From Vicinamibacteria bacterium (lineage in GTDB: Bacteria > Acidobacteriota > Vicinamibacteria > Fen-336 > JAGNNV01), in contig JAIBCN010000120.1 of NCBI GenBank assembly GCA_019694155.1, forward strand, positions 1-61,102: a stretch of DNA of 61,102 bases, written 5' to 3'. Below the pieces are notes generated by a model, which worked only from the letters and a program-made list of their open reading frames with translations, ran no database searches and was not told the DNA's origin. Shown piece by piece: positions 14,299 to 33,350 of the stretch. Numbering within the stretch: position 1 is the stretch's first letter; every line of letters begins with the position of its first letter. The position numbers were made by a program, and so were the translations under genes.

Positions 14299-15270
14299 TC
14301 AGGAACCGGTCGCGAGGCCGATGAAGCGACGCCTCACCACCGCTTCCCAGCGCGGGTGCCAGTTGTACTGGTGCACGATGGACGGAATCGGGTGCGGTGG
14401 AAGGAGGATGTCGCCACCCTCGGTCTCGGCGAGGGCGAGAGGATCCTCGATGCCCATCGTGAGCACCGCGCCCAGCCCGTTTCCCACGAGGGCGGCCGCG
14501 GGAAGGCGACCGGTGTGAATCAGCCAGTTGTGAACGCCCTGATCGAATCCGGGATCGCGGACCCTTCCGATCACCCGGTTCATTTCCGCAACCAGCAACT
14601 CCAGGTACGCGAAGATCGCCCGATGTTCTCCGATCGTCGTCCCCGAGCACGAGATGGGACAGGCGGAGATTCGAGCAAGCGCATCCTCACCGTAGAGCTG
14701 GCGGATCCACGCCGCGTTCTGCCGCTCGGCGCCGATCGAGTAGCGACTCGATTCGAGATAGAAGTTGAGGGGCGCGGGCGCCGGGGCGAGCGAGGGGTCG
14801 CGCTGGAACACGACATCCTTCACGTCGCTCAGCACAATGCGCTCGTAGCGGTGCTCGAGGCGGGAGAGGAAGTCGAGATAGTGAAGGTACCTGCTCGTGC
14901 CCGGCGGGTGGACGAGCAGCGCCGACCATCGGTCGAGACGGCCCCGGAGGCTCGCGGGGAGGGGCAGCCACCTCGCGAGGCGCGTTCCCAGAGGCAGCAG
15001 GCCCATCCGTCGCAGCGCCACGCGCGGAATTCGCCTCAGGAGGTGATCGGCCGGCCACGGCTGCGCCACCGCGATCAGCTCGACCCGGAATCGGGAGATG
15101 CGAGTGCGGTCGGATTCGCTCAGGTCGTGCACGAGCAGGGCGATATCGCCCTCGTAGCCGCTCGCGCGCAGGCTCGCAAGAAAGAGCGCGACCGTGTCGA
15201 AGTCGAAACCGAGGGCGGCTCCAAGCACCAGGGTGTGCGAGCGCCCGGAGGGTCCGGGCCGGCCGCTCAT
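14299..15270 (-). CDS. Glycosyltransferase-like protein (GT-A type)
   Basis: A 323-residue soluble protein. It begins with a nucleotide-sugar-enzyme-like strand (LVLGAALGFDFDTVALFLASLR), and near residue 145 has RIVLSDVKDVVFQRDP, a DxD-like motif characteristic of several GT-A glycosyltransferase families. Later GFDQGVHNWLIHTG and HQYNWHP fit the acceptor side and a metal-binding histidine. Exact family and sugar are not recognisable. It is the first gene of the large glycosylation locus and runs with the methyltransferase and two further minus-strand genes upstream of it. Confidence 0.6.
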   Translation of the reverse strand: MSGRPGPSGRSHTLVLGAALGFDFDTVALFLASLRASGYEGDIALLVHDLSESDRTRISRFRVELIAVAQPWPADHLLRRIPRVALRRMGLLPLGTRLARWLPLPASLRGRLDRWSALLVHPPGTSRYLHYLDFLSRLEHRYERIVLSDVKDVVFQRDPSLAPAPAPLNFYLESSRYSIGAERQNAAWIRQLYGEDALARISACPISCSGTTIGEHRAIFAYLELLVAEMNRVIGRVRDPGFDQGVHNWLIHTGRLPAAALVGNGLGAVLTMGIEDPLALAETEGGDILLPPHPIPSIVHQYNWHPRWEAVVRRRFIGLATGS

Positions 15271-15391
15271 CCACCCGTCGCCCGCAGAAAAGGCGCCCCC
15301 ACCATCCGGCCATGACTCGCGACCACGCGGCCTTCGCGTCCAGGCCGCGCCGCAGATTCAAGGCTCGCGTGGAGATCGACGCTATGCAGTC

Positions 15392-16039
15392 TCATCGCCC
15401 GGTCCTGCGCGCCACGATGAAGCCCACCGATACCGGCGGATCAACGCGCGCCACGATCTCAAACCCGGATCCTCCTTCGATCAGGGGCCGGATAAGGCGC
15501 GCCTTCTCCGTGTGCCAGTCGTGGGCGAAGAGCAGGGATCCCGCGCCCATGCGAGGCTCGAAGAAGCGCAGCTGCTCGAGAGTGGAGTCGGCGTCCTCGG
15601 GCCCGTCGAGCATCACGCAGTCGAGGCTGTCCGGACAGGATCCTGCCCGGTAGTCGCCGACATGGAAGGCGACGTGCGGGGCGAGCTCGGGCAGACGGTG
15701 TTCGAAGGCATGCCGCGCCGCCGCGGAGAGGGTCGCGTCGACCTCCCACGTGTGCAGCATTCCCGCGCCGTTTTGATGGAGCGCGAGGGCGGTGAAGAAG
15801 GTGCTGCCGCCCCCCTTCCAGGTTCCCACCTCGGCGCAACTGCGGGGCTTATGGGCGCGGAGGGTCCGCACGAGAAGCCGGCGCTCGGCGAACCACATCT
15901 GTCCTTCAAGGAACGGGCATCCCTCGAAGCACAGACGCATCTCCCGCGGCGCCAGGGAACGGACGATCCGCCACAGGGCGCGGAAGCGCGGGCCGGTGGC
16001 CTGGAGCGTTCGACGACGCGCAAGTTCCTGTTCGAGCAT
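15392..16039 (-). CDS. Class I SAM-dependent methyltransferase
   Basis: A 215-residue Rossmann-fold methyltransferase of the Methyltransf_24 type. Motif I is visible as SCAEVGTWKGGGSTFF near residue 70, followed by an acidic ribose-binding strand (LHTWEVDAT) and the motif DSLDCVMLDGPED. Such enzymes in polysaccharide and glycoprotein loci often O-methylate sugars, which here would cap or decorate the glycan; this is inferred from context only. Lies between two glycosyltransferase-like genes on the same strand. Confidence 0.8.
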   Translation of the reverse strand: MLEQELARRRTLQATGPRFRALWRIVRSLAPREMRLCFEGCPFLEGQMWFAERRLLVRTLRAHKPRSCAEVGTWKGGGSTFFTALALHQNGAGMLHTWEVDATLSAAARHAFEHRLPELAPHVAFHVGDYRAGSCPDSLDCVMLDGPEDADSTLEQLRFFEPRMGAGSLLFAHDWHTEKARLIRPLIEGGSGFEIVARVDPPVSVGFIVARRTGR

Positions 16040-16098
16040 GTTCCCCTTTGATTCGGTGGTGAGGTCGACTCTAGCCAGGCCCTACCTCGGGAGACGCG

Positions 16099-16806
16099 TC
16101 AATAGCCCCTGCTTCCGCTCAGGGCCCAAGAGAGCGAGCGGCGAGCCCATCTCCTCGCCCACGTCTCGATATCCCGCGGTCCCACGATCAGCGGGGTGTC
16201 CGTCTCGTCGAAGGGCTGACCCACGAACTGCCGCCCGCGGCGCCGCGTCGGGAACGGGCGGCGCGCGAAATATGGATCGTGCTCGAGCCAGGAGCCGCGG
16301 ACCCGAGGGGCAATGACCGCAGTGAGGAAGTCCTGGTCGGGCCCCCAGCGGTCCGCCTTCTCCCATGAACCGACGAGAGCGCTCATGTCCGGAATGGCGC
16401 CTCTCTTCGCGCCCCAGAGTCCGCCGAGTATCGGGGTGTCATGATCGGGGTGATCGCGCATGACATGAAAGGACGCGTCGCTCGCAAGCCAGGCGTCCAC
16501 CGCGGCGCGCTCCCGCGGATTGAGCCTCGAGTCGGCGTCTCGGGAAATCATCACTTCGACCAGGGGGTCGCCCGCCGCGTCGAATCTCCAGAAGAGTCCG
16601 CTCCAGTCGCCCGGTTCGTCCCGGAGACGCAGCTCCACGTTCGGAAACTGCCGCAGGCGCGCCAAGGTCTGTTCGGGAACCGAGGAACCGCAATGGAAGC
16701 GGCACACCCATCCCGGGTATATCCGCAGGGCGAGTTCGGCGTTCCGCACCGCGCCCGCCGTGTACTTGGGGTTGGCACCCCACAGACTGAAGCTGATCAC
16801 CTTCAC
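16099..16806 (-). CDS. Uncharacterised glycosyltransferase-like protein
   Basis: A 235-residue protein starting MKVISFSLWGANPKYTAGA, which resembles conserved proteins of unknown function found in polysaccharide loci. A central VEVMISRDADSRLNPRE is a DxD-type motif that would bind a nucleotide sugar and metal. DRWGPDQDFL follows, a usual partner motif. Its start codon overlaps the stop of the GT18-like gene by four bases, so the two are translationally coupled and probably act on the same glycan. The family is not firmly recognised. Confidence 0.6.
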   Translation of the reverse strand: MKVISFSLWGANPKYTAGAVRNAELALRIYPGWVCRFHCGSSVPEQTLARLRQFPNVELRLRDEPGDWSGLFWRFDAAGDPLVEVMISRDADSRLNPRERAAVDAWLASDASFHVMRDHPDHDTPILGGLWGAKRGAIPDMSALVGSWEKADRWGPDQDFLTAVIAPRVRGSWLEHDPYFARRPFPTRRRGRQFVGQPFDETDTPLIVGPRDIETWARRWARRSLSWALSGSRGY

Positions 16807-17840
16807 GCCGACGTTTCCACCTCCGACAATATCGCGGCAAGGCGTGACCGATAGGCGTCTCGGGTGAAATCGGCGAGGCCCTCGGGCAGGCAGCGTCTCC
16901 CTGAAGCGGGCCCGGCGCGTACGAGTGCTTCCACGGTACGAATCACCTGATCCGGCTCCGCGAGATCGACGCCAAGGACGTGGGGCGGACCGATGGCCGC
17001 GGCGACTGGATGTTGAGAGCCGAAGGAGATCCCGGGATTACCGTCCACGAGCCGCGACGGCGTGAAGGAAGGGTTCAGCAGCACGGCCCCCGCCGCCAGC
17101 GCCTCGAGTGCTGTAGGTCCCAGAATCGGATCTCCCAGGCCCAGAACGAAGCGGGCGCCAAGAAGGAGCTCCCTCCACACCCGGGGCTCCAGGTGTCCGT
17201 GATTCACGATGCCGTCTCCGGAGAGAGCCTCGGTGTCTCCCCATTCGACGGTGAGATGCATGGGCGCGCGGGTCGCGAGCGCCCGGATGAGCGCGCGCTC
17301 CCCGGGGCCGAAGTAGCGCGGTTCCTTTCCCCACACCACGCCGAAGCGGCGAGGCTTCTCGAGGCTTCGTTCGAACTCCACCGTCAGTTCGGACGCATTC
17401 GCAAAGAACGCCCCGGAGGGCGAGCGAAGCATGAAGCCGAGAAAGCGGTTGGCGAGGCCGGGGTAGCGATAGGGGACGAGATAGTCGCGCGGTGTCAGCG
17501 CCGCCGAAGCGGGGATCGCGGCTTCCGTCGTGCCGAACCACTCGAGGATGAAGGGGCGCGTCGACGAACGCCGCGGCAGAGGCAGGTAACGGGAGGCGAG
17601 GGCGAGCGACCAGGGATCGAGGAAGGCCACCGTGGGCTGATGGAATCGAAGGATCTGCCCGGCCCTCAGGCGCAGGAAACCTCGCAGGGTTCCCGTCCGG
17701 CGCGCGGCGATGCCGAGATCTTCAAGACCCGCGAGGAGCGATGCGGCCATGGCCATCTCGCCGGAAGGTCCGCCCCTCGAGGCTCTTCGTTCCCGGTCGG
17801 GATGGAGGGACGTCAGGTACACGAGTGCGGAAGCGCTCAC
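16803..17840 (-). CDS. GT18-family glycosyltransferase (MGAT5-like)
   Basis: A 345-residue protein whose C-terminal half matches the catalytic domain of eukaryotic alpha-1,6-mannosylglycoprotein beta-1,6-N-acetylglucosaminyltransferase (MGAT5, GT18). The shared pattern includes NHG at 213-215, GLGDPILGPTALEALAAG at 234-251 (GLGFPYEGPAPLEAIANG type in MGAT5), LNPSF at 255-259, SQHP at 275-278, and PPHVLGVDL at 285-293 (RPHVWTVDL type). It lacks the membrane anchor and N-terminal regulatory part of the animal enzyme. In eukaryotes this enzyme adds a branching GlcNAc to N-glycans. A branching role in the bacterial glycan is plausible but unproven. It is coupled to the downstream gene by a 4-base overlap. 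Confidence 0.75.
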   Translation of the reverse strand: MSASALVYLTSLHPDRERRASRGGPSGEMAMAASLLAGLEDLGIAARRTGTLRGFLRLRAGQILRFHQPTVAFLDPWSLALASRYLPLPRRSSTRPFILEWFGTTEAAIPASAALTPRDYLVPYRYPGLANRFLGFMLRSPSGAFFANASELTVEFERSLEKPRRFGVVWGKEPRYFGPGERALIRALATRAPMHLTVEWGDTEALSGDGIVNHGHLEPRVWRELLLGARFVLGLGDPILGPTALEALAAGAVLLNPSFTPSRLVDGNPGISFGSQHPVAAAIGPPHVLGVDLAEPDQVIRTVEALVRAGPASGRRCLPEGLADFTRDAYRSRLAAILSEVETSA

Positions 17841-17926
17841 CGCGCGACCCTACCGTGGCCTCCTCCAGGGAGCAACGACCGGCTGGTCCCGCGGATCGCG
17901 TGATACAAAGAGACCCCGGCCCGGCC

Positions 17927-19021
17927 ATGCGTATCGCTCTCATCGGCAACGATCTCTATCCCCAGTTTCCGCTTCGCGGATACGGCGGCATCGAATCCTC
18001 CGTCGAGACTCTGGCCTTCGGTCTGCACCGGGCCGGGCACGATTTTTTCTGCGTGGTTCCGTCCCTGGATGGAGCAAAGGCGCCCCCAAACGGCCTTCCC
18101 GACTACCCGTTCGAGATCATCCGCACAAGGGCGCGAGCCACGGTTCTCTCTCGCGACTCACCGGCCGGGTTCATCGGTGAGGTGGTGGACATCCTCCGCG
18201 CGGCGAAACCAGACGCGATCTGGGCGCAGAGCTGCTGGTCGGCCGGCCCCCTGGCCGCCCTCGGAATTCCCACGATCGTGACCGTGCAGGACAGCGGCCC
18301 GGGCGACCCCGACCGGCTGCTCCGCCATCCTTCCCTCGTGTATCGCTTCATCTCCGCCTACCAATACCGGCTCTGGGTCCGGGATGAAGACACGCGGCGC
18401 CGCGCGCTCATGGCCCATACCAGCCTGGGCGACGAGGAATACGACTTCAACCCTGCGGGCGGGGATGCCTTCTTATGGGTGGGCGGTCTCGGGTGGGGCC
18501 TTCGAGGCAAGGGCCTCGACACATTCATCGAACTCGCGCGGCGGAATCCCGGTATCCGCTTTGTCGCCTACGCGAGCGGGCGGCGCCTGGCCGTCCTCCG
18601 GGCGCGGTGGTCGAGCCTGGGCCTGCGGAACTTCCGCTTCATGGGCGAACTGGTCCGCGGCCAAGCGCATCGCGAGGCCTTCAAGAACGCACGCGCCCTG
18701 GTCATGCCCACGCGTTTGATGGAGGCGCTGGGCCGGACCGTGCTCGAGAGCCTGTCGAAAGGCACGCCGGTCCTCGGGTCGACGAACGGCGCTCTGCCCG
18801 AGCTGATCGACGACTCCTGCGGAGTGACCACGAACGACTTCGAAGAGATGAACGCCGCGCTCCATGCGACTTTCGACCGCGGCGCGTGCTTCGCCGGTTC
18901 CCGGCGGTTTCATGTCCGTCATGAGGTCGCGAAGCTCATGGAGGTAACCGGTGAAATGGCACGCGGAGCCTTTCCGGGCGGTCCCCCGCTGGAAGCGCCG
19001 GGTGAGGCGGCGCGCCCGTGA
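17927..19021 (+). CDS. GT4-family glycosyltransferase
   Basis: A 364-residue retaining glycosyltransferase with a GT-B fold. The N-terminal donor-independent lobe starts MRIALIGNDLYPQFPLRGYGGIE, which is the glycine-rich GGIE form of GT4 enzymes. The C-terminal lobe has FLWVGGLGWGLRGKGLDTFIELA, and the conserved acidic region is ALVMPTRLMEALGRTVLESLSKGTPVLG with the EALG...E spacing of the E-x7-E motif. The chosen ATG at 17927 removes an unlikely arginine-rich extension. It overlaps the next gene (GT61-like) by four bases (ATGA). Sugar and linkage are unknown. Confidence 0.85.
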   Translation: MRIALIGNDLYPQFPLRGYGGIESSVETLAFGLHRAGHDFFCVVPSLDGAKAPPNGLPDYPFEIIRTRARATVLSRDSPAGFIGEVVDILRAAKPDAIWAQSCWSAGPLAALGIPTIVTVQDSGPGDPDRLLRHPSLVYRFISAYQYRLWVRDEDTRRRALMAHTSLGDEEYDFNPAGGDAFLWVGGLGWGLRGKGLDTFIELARRNPGIRFVAYASGRRLAVLRARWSSLGLRNFRFMGELVRGQAHREAFKNARALVMPTRLMEALGRTVLESLSKGTPVLGSTNGALPELIDDSCGVTTNDFEEMNAALHATFDRGACFAGSRRFHVRHEVAKLMEVTGEMARGAFPGGPPLEAPGEAARP

Positions 19022-20394
19022 AGAGGAAGATCCTCGAGGTGATCTGGGCCGTCCGAAAGCGACTGTCCTCGGCGGCGCGCGCCCCTTTGGCGCGGACGGC
19101 GAGAGGCGAGCCTTCGCCCCGCGAGCGCCCCGATTGGGGTAACACCATCCTGGAGGGCGACGCGGCGATCGGCTACGGCTACCTGGACCGCTGGCGCCGG
19201 TCGGGTCGGGACATCCTGTCATCGGGCCCAGGTTCGGCCTCGAACCTGCGCCTCTACTCGCACAACGCACCCGACACGCCCCCCGCGACGCATCCCCACG
19301 TGATCGTGGAAGCACGGGACCTCGTGATCGACTTCGGCAGGATCGGCGCCGCTCGCGAGCTGCGATCGAGACCCGGCTACCAGCGGGTCCGCGGCGGCTA
19401 CCTCGACTATCGAAAAGGCGCCCTCGTCGCCGCCGCGACGCCGGCCGCGGACCTCGGCCCCGATCTTTTCCCCCGCGATCATCTGCGCGACCTCTTCCAC
19501 TCGCTCGAAACGGTGAGCGCGCCGCCTCCGGCCGACCGCACCATCGAAGAATGCTGCCTGCTGGTCGCGCGCGAACCGCGCGAGTACGAGAATCTCTTCC
19601 ACGCGCACACCGACTGGCTTTCCGCATTCGCCGCCGTTCGGGTGCTCGGCCTCGAAGCGGCCAGGAAGCGAGTGGTGATGCTCGACCCCCACCGCCCCGG
19701 CTCCCTCGATGAGGTCCCGGCCTGCCTCTTCTCCGGCGGCGAGCCCTTGTGGCGCCGACGCGACTTCGGATCGGCGCGCGTGCGCTTTCGTCACGCGGTC
19801 TTCGTGCCGCCCGGCTACGCCTCCGTGCTCTGGGCCCGACAGGAGGCCCACTCTCCGGGTCCGCCGGTCGGATTCCTTCAGGACTACGGGCGCTTCTTCC
19901 GAGCGGCCTTTTGCCCGCGTCCCGCCATCGCCACCGATGCGCCCCTCCGCGTCACCCTTCTTGTCCGCCGCCCCTACCCGGGCCGCGGCCCCGTGCTTCT
20001 GCGGCGATTCCGGTCGGACGAGGCGCTCGCGGCCGCCCTGCGCTCCGTGCCAGGCGTCACGGTTGAGGTTGTGGATCCCGCCTCCATGTCGTTCGCCGAT
20101 CAGGTGCGTCTGGCCGCGAGCACGGAGATTCTCGTAGGCGCGCACGGAGCCGGCCTTGCCCACGCGTTCGCCATGGCGGAACACGGAGCGATCCTGGAGA
20201 TCGTGGCCGCCGGCACTTCGACCTATCGGCTCTACGGGAACCTCGCCGCCTGGACGGATCGGCTGCACGCCCGGATCGAGGCGCCGGAAACGGTGGGCTT
20301 CGGCGGAAGCTGGTTCGATCCCGACCCAAGTCAGTTGAGGGACGAGGTCGCCGCCCTCGCGGCGAAGGTCCGCGAACGCCGCGCGCGCGCTTGA
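19018..20394 (+). CDS. GT61-family glycosyltransferase (EOGT-like, DUF563)
   Basis: A 458-residue protein of the GT61/DUF563 family. Diagnostic features are EYENLFHAHTDWLSAF at 189-204 (the N-x-x-H-x-x-x-D motif shared with eukaryotic EOGT and plant xylosyltransferases), then VVMLDPHRPGSLDEVPACLFSG, then AVFVPPGYASVLW. The C-terminal nucleotide-binding motif is LVGAHGAGLAHAFAM. In eukaryotes this family adds GlcNAc or xylose to proteins or polysaccharides. There is no signal peptide or membrane anchor, so it is predicted to be cytoplasmic. It is translationally coupled to the preceding GT4 gene. Confidence 0.82.
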   Translation: MKRKILEVIWAVRKRLSSAARAPLARTARGEPSPRERPDWGNTILEGDAAIGYGYLDRWRRSGRDILSSGPGSASNLRLYSHNAPDTPPATHPHVIVEARDLVIDFGRIGAARELRSRPGYQRVRGGYLDYRKGALVAAATPAADLGPDLFPRDHLRDLFHSLETVSAPPPADRTIEECCLLVAREPREYENLFHAHTDWLSAFAAVRVLGLEAARKRVVMLDPHRPGSLDEVPACLFSGGEPLWRRRDFGSARVRFRHAVFVPPGYASVLWARQEAHSPGPPVGFLQDYGRFFRAAFCPRPAIATDAPLRVTLLVRRPYPGRGPVLLRRFRSDEALAAALRSVPGVTVEVVDPASMSFADQVRLAASTEILVGAHGAGLAHAFAMAEHGAILEIVAAGTSTYRLYGNLAAWTDRLHARIEAPETVGFGGSWFDPDPSQLRDEVAALAAKVRERRARA

Positions 20395-20417
20395 GGAGGT
20401 CCGCGGCGGGCGAGTGT

Positions 20418-21080
20418 TCAGCTTCGAAAGAAACGCGCGGGATTCAGCCGCCGCAGCAGACCTCCGCTCAAGGAACGCGGATACCGCCCCATCTCGCTTC
20501 CGTTCCCAATGAGCGCGGGCACGCTCCAATACGCACGAAGGCCGAGCTCGATCAGGACTTCGTTCACGGTCAGATCGATGGGGGCCCGGATCTTGCGGGT
20601 CTGAAGGGCGTGCGCGGTCTTGCGAGCCGCCTCGGGTGTGACGAGGTAGCCGCTCATGCTGCGGGTCGCCGGCGCCCGGGCGAAGAGCGGCGCTTTCGGG
20701 TCGGGAGGGAGTTCCAGACCGCATGAAGCCCCCAGGAAGACGAAGTCCCAGTCCTTCGGCAGCCCGGCGAAGTAGGGCGCCGCGCGGCCTTCGAAATCCT
20801 GGCCGAAAACCGGATCATCCTCGAGCACGAGCGATGGCTCGCCGGCCGCGGCGATGGCCTCGAGCGCAGCCTGCTGTTTCGCGTAGACGCTGATCTCTCC
20901 CGAGGTCAGCCGGGGATTCCTGACGTTCCGGATCCAGAACCAGGCACCGAGATCCTCGGCTTCGGGGCGCTCCACAAAGCGGGCGTTCCAGCCAAGAGCG
21001 AGCAACGACGCAAGACACTCGGCCCTTCGGGCGCCGAGGCGCGGGGAGTGGATGACCCAGACCGGAAAGGGCTGGATCAC
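20418..21080 (-). CDS. GT25-family glycosyltransferase
   Basis: A 220-residue member of GT25, the family of lipooligosaccharide galactosyltransferases and collagen galactosyltransferases. It starts with a GTG. It shows VWVIHSPRLGARRAE at the N-terminus and LTSGEISVYAKQQAALEAI, followed by the LVLEDDPVF motif, where the EDD residues bind metal and nucleotide. The family's C-terminal APIDLTVNEVL and YWSVPALIGNGSEMG are also present. It converges with the GT61 gene with only 23 bases between them. The probable role is addition of galactose or a related hexose. Confidence 0.82.
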   Translation of the reverse strand: MIQPFPVWVIHSPRLGARRAECLASLLALGWNARFVERPEAEDLGAWFWIRNVRNPRLTSGEISVYAKQQAALEAIAAAGEPSLVLEDDPVFGQDFEGRAAPYFAGLPKDWDFVFLGASCGLELPPDPKAPLFARAPATRSMSGYLVTPEAARKTAHALQTRKIRAPIDLTVNEVLIELGLRAYWSVPALIGNGSEMGRYPRSLSGGLLRRLNPARFFRS

Positions 21081-21225: not shown

Positions 21226-22008
21226 GTGTCCGGCTTGAGCATCAATACACTTCCAGGCGCCTTGCTCCGCGAACTCATAGTCCTCAACCTCCGCCGCTCA
21301 CCCGAGCGCCGGGCCTATATGACCGCCCAGGCCGAGCGCCTCGGTCTCCTTGTGGAGTTCGTGGAGAGTGTCGACGCGGAGGATCTGAAGCGCCTTGGAG
21401 GCGAGGCTCCCCCCGGCCTGTCCTTCGGGGAGTGGGCCTGCCTCAAGACGCACAGCCTGGTCTGGCGCCGGGTGCGCGAATCCGACCGTCCGGCCGTGGT
21501 GCTGGAAGATGACGTGGAACTCCTCCCTTCCTTCCCGGAAGTCGTTGCCGCGGCTTTGGCCACACTGCCGAAAGACGCGCTGCTGCTTCTCGGCCACCAT
21601 TCGACACTTCGAGGCCCGCGCGAGGGAGCCCGGCTCTGTTTCATGAAGACGCCCCTCGCTCCCGGCCACCACATGGCGCGCGTGGCGGAGTTCCCGATGG
21701 GCGCGTATGCGATGGTGATCTCCCCGGGAGCAGCGAAGCGTCTCGCGAAATTCGCGGAGCCGGAGCGAATGGCGGCGGACTGGGTCACCGGCTATTGTCC
21801 GCGGGCCGGGGTCTCCCTGCTCGCGGTGACGCCTCCTTGCGCCATCCCCTCTCCCATCGCGCAGCAATCCACCATCCCCGATCGGCCGAAGGGCGTGGAG
21901 CAGGGTCACGTCTCGCGGAAAGCACCCGGGGTCCTGAGCGAGGCCTGGCTCTTCATCCGAAGACTCGGCATCGCGACGTCCGCGTACACCTTCAGACTGG
22001 AGCGTTGA
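21226..22008 (+). CDS. GT25-family glycosyltransferase, second copy
   Basis: A 260-residue GT25 protein, divergent from the neighbouring GT25 gene and only distantly similar. It has LIVLNLRRSPERRAYM at the start, GEWACLKTHSLVWRRV and VVLEDDVELL with the family EDD motif, then FPMGAYAMVISPGAAKRL. The GTG start at 21226 follows a 145-base gap that separates it from the divergent gene. Its 3' end overlaps that of the converging GT2-like gene by 17 bases. It probably adds a hexose during glycan assembly. Confidence 0.8.
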   Translation: MSGLSINTLPGALLRELIVLNLRRSPERRAYMTAQAERLGLLVEFVESVDAEDLKRLGGEAPPGLSFGEWACLKTHSLVWRRVRESDRPAVVLEDDVELLPSFPEVVAAALATLPKDALLLLGHHSTLRGPREGARLCFMKTPLAPGHHMARVAEFPMGAYAMVISPGAAKRLAKFAEPERMAADWVTGYCPRAGVSLLAVTPPCAIPSPIAQQSTIPDRPKGVEQGHVSRKAPGVLSEAWLFIRRLGIATSAYTFRLER

Positions 22009-26690: not shown

Positions 26691-27829
26691 GGTCGCGGCC
26701 CGATCTCGCTCACGATCGCTCGCAGGCGGGAGCAGAAGGCCTCGACCCCGAGCAACTCCCCTTTCCGCGCGAGAGCCTCGCGCGCCTCGGTCTGCAGTTC
26801 CTTCGAACGCAGCATGCGATCGATCTTCTCCACCGCATCCTGTTCGGATGAATAGAGCAGGCGGGGATCGCCGTCCAGGATCTCGCCCTGCCCCCCGCCG
26901 CCGGGCATGAAGACGAGGCAGCCCGCGGCGACCATCTCCGCGGGGGCCATGCCGAAGTGCTCTTCGCTCATCCCATGAATGCCATAACGGCTCGAGGCGA
27001 TCAGCCGATTCCACGCCCCGCGGTCGAGATCGACCAGGAGGCGCGCCCACGGCGCCCTCGATTCCACTCGAGCATGGATCTCCCTCATGTACGCGAAAGG
27101 CCCCCGGCCTCCCGCGATGGTGAGCGCCACTTCGTGGCCTCGGGCCCGGACGCGTTCCAGGATGGAGATGACCTTCTCGATCTCCTTCTCCGGGGAGATC
27201 CGGCCCAGGCAGAGGAAAGCGTCCTCGCGAGCCTCCCACTCGACGGGCGCGGGCGCGCTGACCGGCGGATGGAGAGTGACGGCGTCGATTCCATGCAGGG
27301 ACTTTACGAGACGGCCGGTCCAGCCGGAGTTCACCAGAGTTCGATTCGCGCGCATCCGCTCGAACGAAATTCCGGACGCGGCGTCGGCGAGGCGGTAGTA
27401 GGCGCGCAGGACGGAAGCTGCGTGGAACCAGCGAAGATCCGCCCCGGGGCGGGGACGCTGGTATCTCGGGTAGTGAATGTACTGAAGGGCGCGGTCGCCC
27501 AGGTCGGCCTCGTTGTTTCCACTGATGGCGAGATCGAACGCGGGCGCCCGGCCGCGGCCGGCCCGCATGAGGAGCGCCGTCTTCAGGAGATCGGTGGGAG
27601 TGGGCAGCAGGTCGAGCATTCCGGCAAGCCGCGGATGGGCGCGCAGGAAGCGCGCGTCGCCGGGGCGAAGCGCTGTCCCAAAATGCCGGTTCACCTCATC
27701 GAGCCGCACCTCGGCCCAGGTCAGCACCGTAAGGTCGTGCTCGTCGCGCAACGCCTGAATCATCCAGGCCGCGACGCCGTTGCCTCCGCCCGGTGGTTGC
27801 AGCGAGGGTTGGACGAACAGGATCCGCAT
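26687..27829 (-). CDS. GT4-family glycosyltransferase, ALG11-like
   Basis: A 380-residue GT-B enzyme. Its motif order resembles eukaryotic ALG11, the GDP-mannose alpha-1,2-mannosyltransferase: GGG at 14-16, QYIHYP at 116-121, TLVNSGWT at 164-171, LHPPV at 186-190, CLGRISPEKEIEKV at 207-220, and GIHGMSEEHFGMAPAEMVAAG at 283-303, where the E-x7-E site falls. Human ALG11 carries the equivalents YVHYP, VNSSWT, YPPC, GQFRPEKNH and EHFGIGVVECMAAG. Its membrane anchor is missing here. No strong ribosome binding site precedes the ATG; an in-frame ATG lies farther upstream. It is divergent from the ALG2-like gene (58 bases apart). GT4 families overlap, so this is the weakest of the three ALG matches. 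Confidence 0.7.
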   Translation of the reverse strand: MRILFVQPSLQPPGGGNGVAAWMIQALRDEHDLTVLTWAEVRLDEVNRHFGTALRPGDARFLRAHPRLAGMLDLLPTPTDLLKTALLMRAGRGRAPAFDLAISGNNEADLGDRALQYIHYPRYQRPRPGADLRWFHAASVLRAYYRLADAASGISFERMRANRTLVNSGWTGRLVKSLHGIDAVTLHPPVSAPAPVEWEAREDAFLCLGRISPEKEIEKVISILERVRARGHEVALTIAGGRGPFAYMREIHARVESRAPWARLLVDLDRGAWNRLIASSRYGIHGMSEEHFGMAPAEMVAAGCLVFMPGGGGQGEILDGDPRLLYSSEQDAVEKIDRMLRSKELQTEAREALARKGELLGVEAFCSRLRAIVSEIGPRP

Positions 27830-27887
27830 TTTGCGGAGGAAGGGTAGCAGGCATGGGGCGAGCCGGCGGTTTGTCATACTGAAGCCC

Positions 27888-29081
27888 ATGGCTCTCCGGA
27901 TCGCCTTCGTCCGCCCCCGGCTCGGTGTGGGCGGCGCCGAGAGGCTGGTCGTCGACGCGGCGCGGGTCCTCGCCGAACGCGGGCACGAGGTAGCGCTCTT
28001 CGCTCCCGACCGCCCCTCGGTTCCCCAGTTCGAAGACGCCGTCTCCCCTCGGTTCTCCTGGGCGCGAGACGGCGCCTGGATTCCCGAATCGCTGCTTGGG
28101 AGGCTGCGCGCGCCCATGGCGATGATCCGCGCCGCCGCGGCGGGGTGGTTCGCTCGCGGCTTCTCGCCCGATGTCGTCTTCGCCGACGTGACCTCGCACA
28201 TCGTTCCCTGGCTCTCCCGCGTCACGCGCGCCCCCGTCGTCTTTTACTGCCATTTCCCGGACGCCCTGCTGACCGCGGAAGGGGCAAGAGCGCGACCGGC
28301 GTACCGGTCCTACCGGAGCCGGCTCGACCGGATGGAGGCGCGTGGCCTCGAGGCGGCCCGGGTCGTCCTCGTGAACAGCGCCTTCACGGCACGCCGGCTG
28401 GCGGAAACGTTCCCCGAACTTCGGGTTCAGACGACCGTACTCGCCCCCGGCGTGGATGTCTCCAGGCACGCCGTGGAGCCCATCTCTGACGATGGGGAGA
28501 TCCCGGTGGTCACCGTCTCCCGCTTCGACCCACGCAAGAACCTGACTCTGGCCGTCGAAGCTTTCGCGGCGGCGAGGCGCGAGGCGCCGGCCGGGCCTCG
28601 ATCACGCATGGTCCTTCACATAGCCGGGCGTCATGACGACCGCTGGCCCGAATGCCGGGAGGCGCTGGCCCATCTGAAGAACATCGCGGCCGGGCTCGGG
28701 ATCGCGGATGCCGTGCGCTTCCATCTCTCCCGAGGCGACGCCGAGGTTCGCGCGCTTCTCGCGGGCTCGCGCGTGGTGCTCTACACGCCCCGGGGCGAGC
28801 ATTTCGGCTACGGCCCCCTCGAAGCGATGGCGTGCGCGCGTCCGGTGATCGCCGTGAACGAAGGCGGACCGGCGGAAACCGTGGTCGACGGTGTGACCGG
28901 GTTCCTGCGCGCTCCCGAGGTCGCGGCCTTCGCGGGCGCTCTGTCTCTCTGCGTGGCCGACCCGGATCTGTCCAGGCGCCTTGGCCTCGCCGGCCGGGAT
29001 CGAGCGGCGTCCAGGTTCTCTCTCGAGGGCTTCGGCAGGGAACTGGAGCAGGTCTGCCTCAGGGTGTCGGGGCGTAGTTGA
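27888..29081 (+). CDS. GT4-family mannosyltransferase, ALG2-like
   Basis: A 397-residue GT-B enzyme that matches eukaryotic ALG2, the alpha-1,3/1,6-mannosyltransferase of the dolichol pathway, at nearly every diagnostic block: LGVGGAERLVVDAA at 12-25, VFYCHFPDALLT at 118-129, VLVNSAFTA at 160-168, KNLTLAVEAF at 217-226, VVLYTPRGEHFGYGPLEAM at 296-314, PVIAVNEGGPAET at 319-331, VTGFL at 336-340, and GLAGR further on. The EHFG...E motif is the retaining GT4 catalytic site. By family it would add mannose to a lipid-linked intermediate from the cytoplasmic side. Its 3' end overlaps the converging STT3 gene by 23 bases. Confidence 0.82.
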   Translation: MALRIAFVRPRLGVGGAERLVVDAARVLAERGHEVALFAPDRPSVPQFEDAVSPRFSWARDGAWIPESLLGRLRAPMAMIRAAAAGWFARGFSPDVVFADVTSHIVPWLSRVTRAPVVFYCHFPDALLTAEGARARPAYRSYRSRLDRMEARGLEAARVVLVNSAFTARRLAETFPELRVQTTVLAPGVDVSRHAVEPISDDGEIPVVTVSRFDPRKNLTLAVEAFAAARREAPAGPRSRMVLHIAGRHDDRWPECREALAHLKNIAAGLGIADAVRFHLSRGDAEVRALLAGSRVVLYTPRGEHFGYGPLEAMACARPVIAVNEGGPAETVVDGVTGFLRAPEVAAFAGALSLCVADPDLSRRLGLAGRDRAASRFSLEGFGRELEQVCLRVSGRS

Positions 29082-31191
29082 AGACGCGCACGGAAGCACG
29101 GCCGAGCCCGGTCAGCGAGGCGTCATCCGACTCGAAGGCGAGCGAGAACCCGGCGCGCGCCTTTAGGTCCACGCACGTGCGAAACGGGTCGCGTGAGGCC
29201 AGGATGTGGCGGCCCGGTCCGAGTGAAGCGCGGTAGCGCTCGGCCGCCGCCTGATCGGGAAACGATCTCGAGGCGGCGACGCGAAGACCGGATCCTGCGG
29301 GGTCGAGTGTGAAGACCCAGACGTCCCGGGCGGCAACGGCCCGCCCGTCGTAGACGTAGAGGTGAACGGCCAGGCTCGTGAAGTAGTCGGGAAGAAAGAG
29401 CCAGGTCTGCCCCTCCGAGCCGTCCTCCCGCTTCTCATCGACCGCGATCATGTACCGGGTCGGTTCGCGACCGCCCCACGAGAGCATCGTCGCGTACTTG
29501 CCGAAGAGTTCGGTCGATGACGTCAGGTGCATGAGCATTTCGTCGCTCACCACCACCGTCTTCAGAGCCAGGTCCTTGAAGGTGGGAGAGTTGTCCTCAT
29601 CGATCGGCGCGGTGAGGAGTTTGCCCGCGACGTCGGCGAAGTACTGAGTGGGATTGCTCAGCGCCACACGGCGGCCAATGCGCTCCACCAGGTAGCCGTA
29701 GTCCCACCAGGTCAGCACCCGGGCTTCCGGCCGCGAATCGGGCGGGGTGGCGAAATAGAACGCCGGATCTCCAAAGGGCTCTGGGCTGGTTCGCCTCAGC
29801 CAGGACATGGCCTGATGCCACCCGAGGGGAGCACCCTCGTCTATCACGAGCGAGAACATGATCGCGCGGGTGCTGGCGCCGAGGATCAGAACGGCCGCCG
29901 CGGCCGCGGCCAGGCGGCTCCCGAGGAAGCGGGACTGCCACAAAGGCCCGAGCAGCATGCCGATGAGAATCGCGAGGTTCGGCACGAGGTAGTAGCCGAA
30001 CCGGATCTGGCCCACGGTCGCGACCAGGGTGAGCACGGTCCAGGCCAGGAGGAGGGCGGATCCCCGGGTCGGGCGCTTCCAGACGCGAGTGACGAGCCAG
30101 GGAAGCGCAATCAGCCCCATGAAGCCCCAGCCGAAAATCGTCGTGACGGTTTCGACCGGATCGTTCGACATGGCCATCAAAGACCGGGTCTCTCCCACCG
30201 TGGATGCGCCGCCGCCGAAGACGCGGGAGAAGTCGCCGGCGAAGGCCGAGAGCGCCGGATGACGCAAAGCCAGCATCCCCGCCAGGACGGCGAGCGCGAA
30301 CAAAGCGAGACCGGCGCGGCGCGGAGGCAACACGCGCCTCGTCACCGCCACGACAAGCGCTCCGACCGCGACGAAGGCGAGAAGGGTCACAAGCGACAGG
30401 TACTGCAGGTCGAATCGATACAAGCCCCGGGACTGAAACGCCATCACCAAAGCGAAGGCGACGCCCGCGGCCGCGGCCAGGGGAATGAAACGTCCCTCGT
30501 GGGCACGCCCGTGCCAGACATCGCCCCAGATCTCGAGAGCAACGCCCGCGGCGAGGGCGGGAACAATGAACGCAGCGCCGCTCCAGACGAGGAAGTACGC
30601 GGCGAGAAAGGCCCCGGCGAGCGCTCCCAGGCGAGCCCCCGCGAAAGACAAGGGCCGCTCGTCGGTCCTGCCCATGGCCTCGATCAGGACGGCGAGAGCG
30701 AGGCTGGTGAAGAGCACCTCGGCCACGTGATGATCCGCAACCCCCACGGTCGAGCGCATCAGGAAGGGCCCGGGCAGGATGACCGCGAAGACGGCCGCGA
30801 TCCAGGCGGCCGGACGGGAGGCGAGGCGTCGCGCAAGCAGGAAGACGGGAACGGCGACGAGGCCTCCCAGCACGGCCGGGGCGACCGCCGCGGCCACGTC
30901 CGCCGCGTAGGTCCCTGGAGCCGGCCACCCGGCGAGGGCCACGAAGAAGGCGAGGATGAGATCGAAGAGCGGGGGCAGGGGGATGAAGACGTTGTTGGCG
31001 TAGGCGTCGTTGGTGAGAGTCGACGGAAAATTCGCGAGATGCCAGTCGAGGCGCCTCAGGTGGTACCAGGCGTCTCCCTGGAAGTTCACGTAGGCGAAGG
31101 TGAAGATCCGCGGCGCAGGGACAAAGCGAAGAGCCACGCCGGCGGCGGTCACGGCCAGCAGACCGAGGATCGTCTTCGTGCGCGGGCGCAT
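29059..31191 (-). CDS. STT3/AglB/PglB-family oligosaccharyltransferase
   Basis: A 710-residue GT-C membrane enzyme with about 12-13 hydrophobic helices up to about residue 445 and a C-terminal periplasmic domain. Catalytic features are present in order: first external loop acidic residue D40 in GDAWYHLRR; D153 in STVGVADHHVAEV, close to the archaeal AglB form; E334 in STVGETRS (the SVSE/TIxE position); and the family hallmark WWDYG at 495-499. After it, SDEM...FGKYATM resembles the DK-type Ser/Thr-binding motif of archaeal and eukaryotic enzymes. It should transfer a lipid-linked oligosaccharide to asparagine in N-X-S/T sequons outside the inner membrane. Its ATG overlaps the ALG1-like stop by one base (TAATG). 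Confidence 0.9.
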   Translation of the reverse strand: MRPRTKTILGLLAVTAAGVALRFVPAPRIFTFAYVNFQGDAWYHLRRLDWHLANFPSTLTNDAYANNVFIPLPPLFDLILAFFVALAGWPAPGTYAADVAAAVAPAVLGGLVAVPVFLLARRLASRPAAWIAAVFAVILPGPFLMRSTVGVADHHVAEVLFTSLALAVLIEAMGRTDERPLSFAGARLGALAGAFLAAYFLVWSGAAFIVPALAAGVALEIWGDVWHGRAHEGRFIPLAAAAGVAFALVMAFQSRGLYRFDLQYLSLVTLLAFVAVGALVVAVTRRVLPPRRAGLALFALAVLAGMLALRHPALSAFAGDFSRVFGGGASTVGETRSLMAMSNDPVETVTTIFGWGFMGLIALPWLVTRVWKRPTRGSALLLAWTVLTLVATVGQIRFGYYLVPNLAILIGMLLGPLWQSRFLGSRLAAAAAAVLILGASTRAIMFSLVIDEGAPLGWHQAMSWLRRTSPEPFGDPAFYFATPPDSRPEARVLTWWDYGYLVERIGRRVALSNPTQYFADVAGKLLTAPIDEDNSPTFKDLALKTVVVSDEMLMHLTSSTELFGKYATMLSWGGREPTRYMIAVDEKREDGSEGQTWLFLPDYFTSLAVHLYVYDGRAVAARDVWVFTLDPAGSGLRVAASRSFPDQAAAERYRASLGPGRHILASRDPFRTCVDLKARAGFSLAFESDDASLTGLGRASVRVFNYAPTP

Positions 31192-32348
31192 TACCGTCCC
31201 AGTATCACCGGACGCGCGTCTCGCTGCCACGACTCTTCCCACGAGCGCCCGGCCGCCGCACCCCGCATGGACTCGAGAGACTCGCGCTCGCCGCCCCTTC
31301 CCGACACGCGCTGCGCCAGTTCCGCGGCGGAGGCGAAGCCAAACCCATCGCGCCCCTCGACAAAACCCTCGACGAGCCCGGGGAATCGAAGGGCGAGGAC
31401 GGGCAGCCCGGCGCCGCGCATGTCGTGGATCTTCATCGGGAAATCGGCGCCGGACGAAGAGGCGTGAAGGGACAGGCCCAGGTCGGCGCCGGCGAGCAGC
31501 CGCGCGTAGTCAGAGCCCTCGAACCAGGCGGTGGCGAAGCGCACGCGGCCCCAGGGCCGGCCCGCGACGCGACTCTCGAACGACGCCTTCTGCTCGCCCC
31601 GGCCGGAGATGATGAAGACGATCGGAGGGCCCGGCCTGTCGTCGAGGAGCGTGCCCGCCGATGCGAGAAGCTCGAAATCCTCGTCGCGCGTCCAGCTCGT
31701 GGGGCTGATCACGATGGTGAGCCCGTCCGAATCGGGGACCGCGATGCGTTGGAGGAGCTCCGCCCTCAGGAGGAGACGCTCGGCTTCGCTCACCGGGCCG
31801 AAGGCTCGCGACGGTCGATCCTGGAAGACGCGGGCCTCGACACCGAATCGGGCCCGAAGCGCCTCTCCGAGCCTTTGCGTCACGCACAGATGAGCGTGGG
31901 CGGCGCGAGCGGACCGCCCCTCGCCCCACCCGTAGAGGCGGACCGCCGGATTTTTCGGACCGGTACGGAGAGCAAGCAGGGAGAAGCCGAGGTTGTGCCA
32001 GTCGAAGACCACGCGCGCGCCGCGCGCGCGGCCGAATCGCGCGGCCAGAAACAGGGCGGGAAGAGCAGGAGGCGTCTGCGCCAGAACCACGTCCGGAGAC
32101 TCGAGCGATCCGAGGACCTTCGAGAGCGACAGAGAAAGCGAGAGGCCGCGCAGGATCCTCGAGCGGTGGGAGCGTCCGTCCCCGACGAAGCGGATCGAAA
32201 CCCGGGCGGACGGGCCTAGGAGCCAGCAGGGCGACCCCGCGAAACCCACGAGGTCGACGTCGCACCCGGCCTCCGCGAGCGATGCGGCATGGAGCTGAAT
32301 GCGAGGACTCCGCCCGAGATCTCCGAGAGCGAGCACTGTCGCGCGCAT
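31191..32348 (-). CDS. ALG1-like beta-mannosyltransferase (GT33)
   Basis: A 385-residue GT-B enzyme matching eukaryotic ALG1, chitobiosyldiphosphodolichol beta-1,4-mannosyltransferase, along its length: LGDLGRSPRIQLHAASLA at 8-25, TPPALP at 92-97, FDWHNLGFSLLAL at 115-127, HAHLCVTQRL at 151-160, SPTSWTRDEDFELL at 215-228, ISGRGEQ at 247-253, WFEGSDYARLLAGADLGLSLHASSSG at 275-300, FPMKIHDM at 303-310, and SWEESW near the end (RWDESW in human ALG1). The N-terminal membrane anchor of the eukaryotic enzyme is absent. It should add the first mannose to a lipid-linked chitobiose-like acceptor. The start is nine bases from the divergent WecA-type gene. Confidence 0.85.
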   Translation of the reverse strand: MRATVLALGDLGRSPRIQLHAASLAEAGCDVDLVGFAGSPCWLLGPSARVSIRFVGDGRSHRSRILRGLSLSLSLSKVLGSLESPDVVLAQTPPALPALFLAARFGRARGARVVFDWHNLGFSLLALRTGPKNPAVRLYGWGEGRSARAAHAHLCVTQRLGEALRARFGVEARVFQDRPSRAFGPVSEAERLLLRAELLQRIAVPDSDGLTIVISPTSWTRDEDFELLASAGTLLDDRPGPPIVFIISGRGEQKASFESRVAGRPWGRVRFATAWFEGSDYARLLAGADLGLSLHASSSGADFPMKIHDMRGAGLPVLALRFPGLVEGFVEGRDGFGFASAAELAQRVSGRGGERESLESMRGAAAGRSWEESWQRDARPVILGR

Positions 32349-32357
32349 GAATCGGTC

Positions 32358-33350
32358 ATGATACCGGCCGTTCTCATGACCCTGCTTCTGCACGCCGCCG
32401 TGTCCGCATTGCTGGCCTTCGTTCTGACCCCGATGGTGGCGAAGCTCTCGGTGAGGCTTGGCGTCATGGATCTCCCGGGGCCGCGCAAGGCCCATCGGGA
32501 GGCGGTGCCGCGTCTCGGCGGACTCGCGGTCCTGTTGGGCGCGTCGCTCGGTCTTGCCGTGGTGACTCCCCTCGCCGGCCCCTGGACGGAGATGAGTTCG
32601 AGGCCCCTCGTCCTCCTGCTCCTCGGCGGCCTCGCCGTGTTCCTCATCGGCCTCCTCGATGATGTCCGGGGTCTCTCCGCGACCGGGAAGCTTTTGGCGG
32701 AGGCGGCGGTGGCGATCCTGGTGGTGGCCTCAGGCGTGCGCATCGAGAGGGCGACGCTCCTGGGCTCGGTGATCGAGCTCGGGGTTTTCGCTCCGGCGCT
32801 CACCGTCTTGTGGATCGTGGTCCTCACCAACGCCTTCAACCTCATCGACGGCCTCGACGGGCTCGCCACGGGAGTCGCCCTCATTTCCGGCTCCACGTGC
32901 GCGCTGATCCTCGCGGTGCGCGGCAACCAGGCGGAGGCCGTCATCCTGGCCGCTCTGGTGGGAGCGGCCCTCGGTTTCCTCCCCCACAATTTCAGCCCCG
33001 CGCGGATCTTCCTCGGGGACTGCGGGAGCCTGCTCTTCGGCTACTTCCTCGCGACCACGGCCATCACGGGCTTCCAGAAGGGCGCCACCGTGCTTTCCGT
33101 GGGCGCCCCCATGCTGCTCTTTGCGCTGCCTCTCGTCGAGACCACGGCCTCGATCGTGCGTCGTTCTCTCCGGGGCGCGAAGCTCTCGGGCTTTCGCGGC
33201 CTGCTCCAGATCCTCGTCGCCGACCAGGAACACATCCATCACCGGCTCATCGACGCCGGCCTCAGCCCAAAGATGGTGGTGCTCGTCCTTTACACTCTCA
33301 CCCTCGGCCTCTGCTTTCTGGCCCTCTTCACGGTGCGAAATGTCCCCTGA
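32358..33350 (+). CDS. WecA/TagO-type polyprenyl-phosphate glycosyl-1-phosphate transferase
   Basis: A 330-residue inner-membrane protein of the MraY/WecA superfamily with about ten helices. Diagnostic loops are DLPGPRKAHREAVPRLGG, then LIGLLDDVRGLSATGK (the DD motif), then NAFNLIDGLDGLATG (NxxNxxDGxDGL), FLGDCGSLLFGY and DQEHIHHRLIDAGLSP (the HIHHRL histidine motif of WecA-like members). It should place HexNAc-1-phosphate, probably GlcNAc-1-P, on polyprenyl phosphate and so start the oligosaccharide, the role ALG7 has in eukaryotes. The ATG at 32358 is preferred; an in-frame upstream start would overlap the divergent ALG1-like gene. Confidence 0.88.
   Translation: MIPAVLMTLLLHAAVSALLAFVLTPMVAKLSVRLGVMDLPGPRKAHREAVPRLGGLAVLLGASLGLAVVTPLAGPWTEMSSRPLVLLLLGGLAVFLIGLLDDVRGLSATGKLLAEAAVAILVVASGVRIERATLLGSVIELGVFAPALTVLWIVVLTNAFNLIDGLDGLATGVALISGSTCALILAVRGNQAEAVILAALVGAALGFLPHNFSPARIFLGDCGSLLFGYFLATTAITGFQKGATVLSVGAPMLLFALPLVETTASIVRRSLRGAKLSGFRGLLQILVADQEHIHHRLIDAGLSPKMVVLVLYTLTLGLCFLALFTVRNVP

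What the first reader, a model, noticed from the sequence alone, without database searches (positions are those of the whole stretch)
14299..33350. Bacterial locus resembling a eukaryote-type N-glycosylation pathway
One dense locus holds a WecA-type phosphoglycosyltransferase, glycosyltransferases with motif matches to ALG1, ALG2 and ALG11, an ABC flippase, an STT3 oligosaccharyltransferase, and GT18 and GT61 enzymes related to eukaryotic glycoprotein-modifying enzymes. Known bacterial Pgl systems use other glycosyltransferases. A set that mirrors the dolichol core steps (ALG7-like, ALG1, ALG2, ALG11, OST) next to one another in a bacterium is unusual and may bear on the origin of the eukaryotic pathway. 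An ALG13/14 counterpart is not in the window.
Basis: partly seen in the sequence, partly recalled or inferred. Interest (0 to 1): 0.95.

Follow-up and report, generated by a model that had tools for sequence, protein, structure and literature searches.

The report
Bacterial cluster with eukaryote-type ALG1, ALG2
A bacterium carries, side by side, a clear relative of the eukaryotic sugar-adding enzyme ALG1, a likely relative of ALG2 and an archaeal-type enzyme that is predicted to attach the finished sugar chain to proteins; related gene sets recur in several bacterial phyla, so they may let us test where part of our own protein-glycosylation pathway came from.

Summary
Window 22.8-33.4 kb holds a WecA-type initiator, an ALG1 homologue, an STT3/AglB-type oligosaccharyltransferase, an ALG2 homologue, a GT4 enzyme, two GT2 and an ABC exporter; variable glycosyltransferases follow to 14.3 kb. 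ALG1 is real homology: insect ALG1 at E=1.5e-60 over 99% of the protein and a shared ALG1-type signature. The 'ALG11' gene shows no specific ALG11 affinity, and Alg14 was found in 0 of 19 genomes. The transferase is closest to archaeal AglB, then eukaryotic STT3, then PglB. Of 69 bacterial ALG1 loci, 26 hold an STT3-family gene, 29 the GT4, 27 the ABC gene, 19 WecA and 15 ALG2 in the held stretch; 23 hold none. Two Rokubacteria share the core order. Trees place eukaryotic ALG1 among bacterial ones, but the root is undecided and archaea are missing. Best reading: a bacterial N-glycosylation pathway, predicted, untested.

The parts
32358..33350 (+). WecA-type polyprenyl-phosphate HexNAc-1-P transferase (330 aa), predicted to start the lipid-linked glycan
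   Evidence: PF00953 E=3e-39; NCBIfam wecA 113 bits against a cut-off of 326, so superfamily only; homologue near ALG1 in 19 of 69 loci
31191..32348 (-). ALG1 homologue (385 aa), predicted beta-1,4-mannosyltransferase
   Evidence: Eukaryotic hits E=1.5e-60 and 6e-45; signature HASSSGADFPMK at residue 295; AlphaFold GT-B model pLDDT 94.6
29059..31191 (-). STT3/AglB-type oligosaccharyltransferase (710 aa); its start overlaps the ALG1 stop by one base (TAATG)
   Evidence: PF02516, AglB_core-like; TIGR04154 293.8 bits, E=3e-87, below cut-off 450; profile hits A. fulgidus AglB E=4e-102; best fold match AglB 7e9s; junction
27888..29081 (+). ALG2 homologue (397 aa), predicted alpha-1,3/1,6-mannosyltransferase
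   Evidence: labels; recalled human/yeast ALG2 E=1.4e-58/4.4e-42; EX7E motif EHFGYGPLE at residue 304
26687..27829 (-).
   Evidence: PF00534 E=3e-11; homologue near ALG1 in 29 of 69 loci
25563..26690 (-). GT2 glycosyltransferase (375 aa)
   Evidence: PF00535 E=3e-8
24657..25574 (+). GT2 glycosyltransferase (305 aa)
   Evidence: PF00535 E=2e-6
22825..24624 (-). ABC exporter (599 aa), predicted flippase of the lipid-linked glycan
   Evidence: PF00005 E=7e-28; NCBIfam HepA, MsbA, PglK and others, the 25 shown of 188 all below cut-off; homologue near ALG1 in 27 of 69 loci
21992..22828 (-). GT2-like protein (278 aa)
   Evidence: PF00535 E=2e-5
21226..22008 (+). GT25 glycosyltransferase (260 aa)
   Evidence: PF01755 E=1e-15
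20418..21080 (-). possible GT25 relative (220 aa)
   Evidence: PF01755 E=0.005, below cut-off
19018..20394 (+). GT61 glycosyltransferase (458 aa)
   Evidence: PF04577 E=6e-14
17927..19021 (+). GT4 glycosyltransferase (364 aa)
   Evidence: PF13692 E=5e-12
16803..17840 (-). GT18-family protein (345 aa)
   Evidence: PF15024 E=7e-21
16099..16806 (-). protein of unknown family in the cassette (235 aa)
   Evidence: no Pfam or NCBIfam family at E<=0.01
15392..16039 (-). methyltransferase (215 aa)
   Evidence: PF13578 E=5e-10
14299..15270 (-). protein of unknown family in the cassette (323 aa)
   Evidence: no Pfam family at E<=0.01

Best explanation
The locus is a bacterial gene cluster that likely builds a mannose-containing glycan on a membrane lipid with a WecA-type starter and ALG1- and ALG2-type mannosyltransferases, would flip it across the membrane with the ABC exporter, and is predicted to transfer it to asparagines of exported proteins with an archaeal-type (AglB) oligosaccharyltransferase. 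Shown here: the families, the main catalytic motifs of the transferase, the homology of ALG1 to eukaryotic ALG1, and the recurrence of the core in several bacterial phyla. Supported only by recalled references and by source labels: the ALG2 identity. Inferred: the sugars (mannose from GDP-mannose), the lipid (undecaprenyl phosphate), the order of steps, flipping by this ABC protein, and N-linkage to N-X-S/T. The left half (GT18, GT61, GT25, GT2, GT4, methyltransferase) probably elaborates the outer, lineage-specific part of the glycan.
For: ALG1: insect protein E=1.5e-60, fungal E=6e-45. The stretch HxSSSGxDxPMK is in the window and in the four proteins I treat as eukaryotic (two of them named), the looser pattern in 83 of 92 family members of at least 370 aa (of 98 looked at), in 52 of 64 locus ORFs over 300 bits, in 0 of 120 ALG2-family proteins and in 0 of 47 locus ALG2/GT4 ORFs. 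The ALG1 profile has no PDB match better than E=0.22, so this is not generic GT4 similarity. ALG2. OST: GDAWY, DHH, TVGE, WWDYG present, as defined for A. fulgidus AglB in passages of PMC8342417; AglB is best by profile (E=4e-102) and by fold (E=1e-25, TM 0.75). Two Rokubacterial relatives and P0228 pass the curated AglB-subfamily cut-off (482, 482, 468 against 450 bits). Linkage: 26 of 69 ALG1 loci hold an STT3-family ORF in the held stretch (up to 10 kb each side), 46 of 69 at least one core partner by score thresholds that I chose. Order WecA< ALG1> STT3> ALG2< is the same in the window and in Rokubacteria L029 and L039. Co-occurrence in 247 genomes of the phylum: STT3 over cut-off in 6 of 11 with ALG1 against 19 of 236 without (p=2e-4; without the own genome 5 of 10, p=1e-3). 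ALG1 stop and STT3 start overlap.
Against: No biochemistry or glycopeptides. No Alg14 in 19 of 19 genomes, and none of the three PF04101 hits of the own genome lies in this contig, so the second GlcNAc step has no candidate. No complete fused GMP-PMI in the own genome (C-terminal stretch only); GDP-mannose supply not shown. The OST has no exact DxxKxxxM, although a GKxxxM segment aligned with AglB's is there. It misses the TIGR04154 cut-off (294 against 450). Sequons of the neighbouring predicted secreted protein are not significantly enriched (22 against 16.5, P=0.077). In 23 of 69 loci ALG1 stands without any core partner, and 23 of 68 ALG1 genomes show no STT3: ALG1-type enzymes also serve elsewhere. 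The co-occurrence test ignores kinship, and three of its six double carriers are one genus. No other gene family was run as a control for the linkage count.
Confidence: 0.8

Rival explanations
1. The cluster makes a surface polysaccharide or glycolipid (O-antigen/capsule-like) and the STT3-type enzyme transfers it to something other than asparagine, or is a bystander.
For: Many genes are of kinds common in capsule/LPS loci (GT2, GT25, GT4, methyltransferase); 23 of 69 ALG1 loci lack every core partner and 23 of 68 ALG1 genomes lack STT3.
Against: An STT3-family ORF with ALG1 in 26 of 69 loci in several phyla, overlapping its stop codon here, with the main catalytic motifs; the best fold matches are N-glycosylating OSTs (AglB, STT3, PglB fill ranks 1-18).
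Confidence: 0.15
2. The ALG1- and ALG2-like genes are ordinary bacterial GT4 genes that only look like ALG enzymes by shared GT-B motifs.
For: Fold search of the ALG1 model returns generic GT4 enzymes (MshA, BshA) at 11-18% identity; the third gene, called ALG11, fits this null.
Against: Full-length E=1.5e-60 to insect ALG1; ALG1 signature absent from 167 ALG2/GT4 proteins; the ALG1 profile has no PDB match better than E=0.22.
Confidence: 0.04
3. ALG1 and ALG2 came into bacteria from eukaryotes and then spread among phyla; the cluster is a secondary assembly and says nothing about eukaryotic origins.
For: Outgroup-rooted AU tests do not reject all bacterial ALG1 as one clade (1.26 log units lower, p=0.186; in the quick 59-row tree that arrangement scored 36.6 log units better, p=0.925) nor all bacterial ALG2 (10.97 better, p=0.725).
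Against: In the careful ALG1 tree the eukaryotes group inside bacteria with L022, L027 and L065 (98/96) and 0% of 200 bootstrap trees hold the bacteria together; MAD rooting ranks the eukaryote stem 89th of 209 branches; bacterial carriers span several phyla with a recurring gene set.
Confidence: 0.2

Closest known systems
Eukaryotic dolichol-linked N-glycan assembly (ALG7, ALG13/14, ALG1, ALG2, ALG11, OST)
   Same: ALG1 homologue and likely ALG2 homologue over their full length; GlcNAc-1-P transferase superfamily; STT3-family OST
   Different: No ALG11 or Alg14 counterpart found; OST nearer AglB; ABC exporter; bacterial cluster with extra GTs
Archaeal AglB N-glycosylation (A. fulgidus AglB; TIGR04154 subfamily)
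   Same: OST fold and main motifs; best profile and fold match
   Different: Window protein is shorter (710 aa) and below the subfamily cut-off; partnered with ALG1, for which none of the 69 loci returned by the pattern scan had an archaeal title
Campylobacter-type Pgl system (PglB, PglK, PglA/H/J; composition recalled)
   Same: Bacterial, OST plus ABC exporter plus GT4 enzymes
   Different: PglB comes after AglB and eukaryotic STT3 in the fold search (best E=5e-11) and is not reached by the profile at E<=0.01; PglK model 194 bits against a cut-off of 1000

Membership tests
STT3/AglB/PglB oligosaccharyltransferase | PF02516 over curated cut-off | tested here: met
   60 bits against 24.5
STT3/AglB/PglB oligosaccharyltransferase | Two DXD motifs, TIXE/SVSE, WWDYG | tested here: met
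   GDAWY 40, DHH 154, TVGE 332, WWDYG 496 in the 711-residue reading; definitions from passages of PMC8342417
STT3/AglB/PglB oligosaccharyltransferase | DK or MI motif in the C-terminal domain | tested here: inconclusive
   No exact DxxKxxxM; the only MxxI lies at 359, in the membrane part. A GKxxxM segment aligned with the one of A. fulgidus AglB is present
TIGR04154 archaeosortase-associated AglB | Curated cut-off 450 bits | tested here: not met
   Window 293.8; relatives L078, L081, P0228 pass
ALG1 (GT33) | Full-length homology to eukaryotic ALG1 | tested here: met
   E=1.5e-60, 99% coverage, Bemisia tabaci beta-1,4-mannosyltransferase
ALG1 (GT33) | HxSSSGxDxPMK stretch and no EX7E (signature derived here, not a published definition) | tested here: met
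ALG1 (GT33) | Beta-1,4-mannosyl transfer to GlcNAc2-PP-lipid | not testable with these tools
   needs an enzyme assay
ALG2 | Full-length homology to eukaryotic ALG2 | tested here: inconclusive
   E=1.4e-58 and 4.4e-42, but against sequences recalled from memory; jgi labels agree
ALG2 | EX7E motif | tested here: met
   EHFGYGPLE; 119 of 120 listed family members fit a similar pattern
ALG11 | ALG11_N domain (PF15924, accession recalled) | tested here: not met
   absent at E<=0.01 in the window protein and in 3 relatives
ALG11 | Specific affinity to ALG11 | tested here: not met
   window gene E=3e-4 to recalled human ALG11; relatives L056, L015, L016 reach about 1e-17, no better than ALG2-family proteins (to 3e-25); recalled ALG11 lies on a long branch between the two families
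ALG13/ALG14 | Alg14 (PF08660) in the genome | tested here: not met
   0 of 19 genomes; the control rings in 1 of 14 genomes, Methanosarcina acetivorans
Campylobacter-type Pgl | PglB as closest OST | tested here: not met

The most novel reading that the evidence does not exclude
The ALG1 and ALG2 steps of eukaryotic N-glycosylation descend from an adjacent bacterial ALG1-ALG2 gene pair that worked in a bacterial oligosaccharyltransferase cluster: several bacteria (for example L022, L027, L028, L030) carry the two genes side by side, three of these four with an STT3-family gene in the held stretch, and the bacterial ALG1 proteins nearest to eukaryotic ALG1 (L022, L027, L065) come partly from the same loci.
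Probability: 0.3. Interest if true: 0.95.

Novelty: new variant of a known kind. Interest (0 to 1): 0.84.

Why it matters
Lombard 2016 (PMC4973528) could not determine the closest prokaryotic relatives of Alg1 and suggested that it may be a eukaryotic innovation. A family of bacterial ALG1 homologues, often beside an oligosaccharyltransferase gene, makes that question directly testable by tree and by enzyme assay. It would also add a bacterial N-glycosylation route that pairs an archaeal-type transferase with eukaryote-type mannosyltransferases; the listings I saw of eight searches of an open-licence library showed no title or abstract start reporting it. The enzymes could also help to build mannose-core glycans in bacteria.

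Tried and rejected
ALG11 label: rejected. Alg14 and Glyco_tran_28_C counterparts: sought, none in the locus. Fused GMP-PMI: only a C-terminal stretch. Sequon enrichment in 25 window ORFs (the secreted Ig-like protein among them, some not supported as genes): none significant, lowest P=0.077. GT18 and GT61 as part of the core: no homologue in 69 loci. Fold search of the ALG1 model: only generic GT4 matches, not informative. Outgroup rooting of ALG1 and ALG2 does not settle direction. The ALG1 signature pattern was mistyped and gave 0 of 95; the corrected one is. An early STT3 profile from ten close relatives missed distant STT3 genes (16 of 69 loci); a broader one gave 26 of 69. Rows: the 106-row ALG1 tree used 62 of 69 loci (7 dropped as under 330 residues) and 44 of 99 proteins; the careful tree 41 rows that I picked; the ALG2 trees 85 and 37 rows, with proteins from the 120 of 1,626 hits that were listed.
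Full report
WHAT IS THERE. The window is one 61,102-base contig of an unnamed 5.27 Mb genome, 93.7% complete and 0.5% contaminated. The flanks look bacterial (TonB receptor, MFS, MacB/FtsX on the left; phosphofructokinase, histidine kinase and PAS proteins on the right), so the locus is not a stray eukaryotic or archaeal contig. Mean GC3 of the 17 locus genes is 0.822 against 0.866 in 19 flanking genes that I chose (p=6e-4), a mild hint of a different history.

GENES. The core is, from right to left: WecA-type transferase (+), ALG1 (-), STT3 (-), ALG2 (+), a GT4 enzyme (-), GT2 (-), GT2 (+), ABC exporter (-). Left of it lie a GT2-like protein, two GT25-like (one below cut-off), GT61, GT4, GT18, an unknown protein, a methyltransferase and another unknown protein. 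The ALG1 stop (TAA) and the STT3 start (ATG) share one base.

ALG1. A search of 5.77 billion proteins gave 99 hits at E<=1e-5 among 7,997 scored candidates. They include a Bemisia tabaci beta-1,4-mannosyltransferase (E=1.5e-60, 33% over 99%) and a lichen-fungus mannosyltransferase (E=6e-45); jgi calls many of the others beta-1,4-mannosyltransferase. The profile of 32 of these 99 has no PDB match better than E=0.22. The stretch HxSSSGxDxPMK stands in the window protein and in the four proteins that I treat as eukaryotic (two named, two inferred); a looser form is in 83 of 92 hits of at least 370 aa, in 52 of 64 locus ORFs over 300 bits, in 0 of 120 ALG2-family proteins and in 0 of 47 locus ALG2/GT4 ORFs. 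The AlphaFold model is confident (pLDDT 94.6) and has the GT-B fold of GT4 enzymes at 11-18% identity.

ALG2. The search listed 120 of 1,626 hits; where jgi names one it is an alpha-1,3/alpha-1,6-mannosyltransferase. These references are recalled, so this is a strong lead rather than a test.

ALG11 AND ALG13/14. The third gene lacks ALG11_N (three relatives). Recalled human ALG11 matches it at E=3e-4 by phmmer (2e-7 by blastp on the window proteins) and the ALG2 gene at 2e-15 (4e-15). Some relatives of the third gene do better (L056, L015, L016 about 1e-17), but ALG2-family proteins reach 3e-25, and recalled ALG11 sits on a long branch between the two families. So I reject the label for this gene. 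It is still a frequent partner (29 of 69 loci). Alg14 was absent from 19 of 19 genomes; the control rang in 1 of 14.

OST. The two DXD-type sites, TIXE and WWDYG are present; the DK/MI motif is not there in its exact form, though a GKxxxM segment aligned with AglB's is (definitions from passages of PMC8342417). The profile of 15 relatives hits A. fulgidus AglB at E=4e-102, mammalian STT3A at 2e-17, yeast STT3 at 2e-11 and no PglB at E<=0.01. The model (pLDDT 87.4) ranks AglB first (E=1e-25, TM 0.75), eukaryotic STT3 next and PglB after them (E=5e-11). Two Rokubacterial relatives and P0228 pass the curated AglB-subfamily cut-off; the window protein does not. This agrees with Lombard 2016 (section 14 read): the few bacterial homologues lie within the euryarchaeal clade.

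RECURRENCE. One pattern scan of the genome collection (84,980 species) returned 69 ALG1 loci, all with bacterial record titles; the patterns came from an alignment that is mostly bacterial, so distant archaeal forms could be missed. The held stretches (up to 10 kb each side, many shorter) contain, of 69: STT3 family 26, GT4 29, ABC 27, WecA 19, ALG2 15; 23 have none of them (thresholds mine; no other gene family was run as a control, but 20 kb of a 5 Mb genome would hold a given gene by chance in well under 1% of cases). The order WecA< ALG1> STT3> ALG2< is the same in the window and in Rokubacteria L029 and L039; L016 has ALG2, GT4, WecA, ALG1, STT3. Carriers with STT3 are titled Acidobacteria and its classes, Rokuibacteriota, Myxococcales, Deltaproteobacteria, Proteobacteria, Binatia and Opitutaceae. 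In the metagenome hits, four ALG1 and STT3 pairs share a contig length (4331, 8558, 10737, 13756), two of them with ALG2 too, which suggests the same contigs. In whole genomes, 45 of 68 ALG1 carriers have an STT3 match, 43 over cut-off, against 25 of 247 over cut-off in the phylum sample (41 of 247 at E<=0.001). Within that sample 6 of 11 ALG1 genomes have STT3 against 19 of 236 without ALG1 (p=2e-4; without the own genome 5 of 10, p=1e-3); the test ignores kinship, and three of the six are one genus. A group of Acidobacteria-titled genomes with ALG1 but mostly without STT3 (L003-L014 and others) shows that ALG1-type enzymes also work outside this pathway.

EVOLUTION. In an ALG1 tree of 106 rows the four eukaryotes form one group (89), next to L022, L065, L027, L028. 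With an ALG2/GT4 outgroup, the careful tree of 41 rows puts them inside bacteria with L022, L027, L065 (98/96), but holding all bacteria together is not rejected (p-AU 0.186), and in a quicker tree of 59 rows it scored better (p 0.925). MAD rooting of the 106-row tree puts the root inside bacteria (best deviation 0.192; eukaryote stem 0.259, 89th of 209 branches). For ALG2 the quick tree nests the two recalled eukaryotes near L069, L027, L028, while the careful one leaves them in a bush (p-AU 0.725 for all bacteria together). So kinship is firm for ALG1, direction is open, and archaea are missing from all trees.

LITERATURE. Lombard 2016 (PMC4973528; abstract, section 14 and 12 of 31 passages seen) states that the closest prokaryotic relatives of Alg1 could not be determined and that it may be a eukaryotic innovation, and that a euryarchaeal clade with several bacterial groups is related to Alg2/Alg11; so bacterial relatives of ALG2/ALG11 were in part known. 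In the passages that I saw, the Agl24 paper (PMC8993221) and the Asgard paper (PMC10307638) do not treat bacterial ALG1. Eight library searches (0 papers, up to 15 listed in the others of up to 130 found) listed no title or abstract start reporting this cluster; only open-licence papers are held. jgi's names already call such proteins beta-1,4-mannosyltransferase, alpha-1,3/1,6-mannosyltransferase and dolichyl-diphosphooligosaccharide--protein glycosyltransferase.

VERDICT. A predicted bacterial N-glycosylation cluster with ALG1- and ALG2-type mannosyltransferases and an AglB-type OST; ALG11 and ALG13/14 not supported; direction of transfer undecided.

Noticed in passing
window 33956-37477 (+): Large predicted secreted protein with six Big_3_5 Ig-like stretches and a lamin-tail match below cut-off, directly beside the cluster; 22 sequons against 16.5 expected, not significant. 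A candidate substrate.
   Followed up: partly
L003-L014, L018, L020, L024, L032, L050, L057 and others: A group mostly titled Acidobacteria keeps ALG1 with no core partner in the held stretch, and most of its genomes have no STT3 match; its ALG1 must act in some other pathway.
   Followed up: no
   Followed up: partly
L027 3168-8830: Two long STT3-family ORFs in tandem (934 and 1056 aa) lie just upstream of ALG1-ALG2-ABC; the longer one scores low against the AglB subfamily and the PDB, so it is of a different STT3 branch from the window's.
   Followed up: no
window 13624-14265 (+): Protein with a SeqA C-terminal domain match (E=1.5e-8, over cut-off), outside the enterobacteria in which SeqA is usually described (recalled).
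   Followed up: no
window 41433-42131 (+): Multihaem cytochrome with CytoC_RC and CXXCH matches.
   Followed up: no
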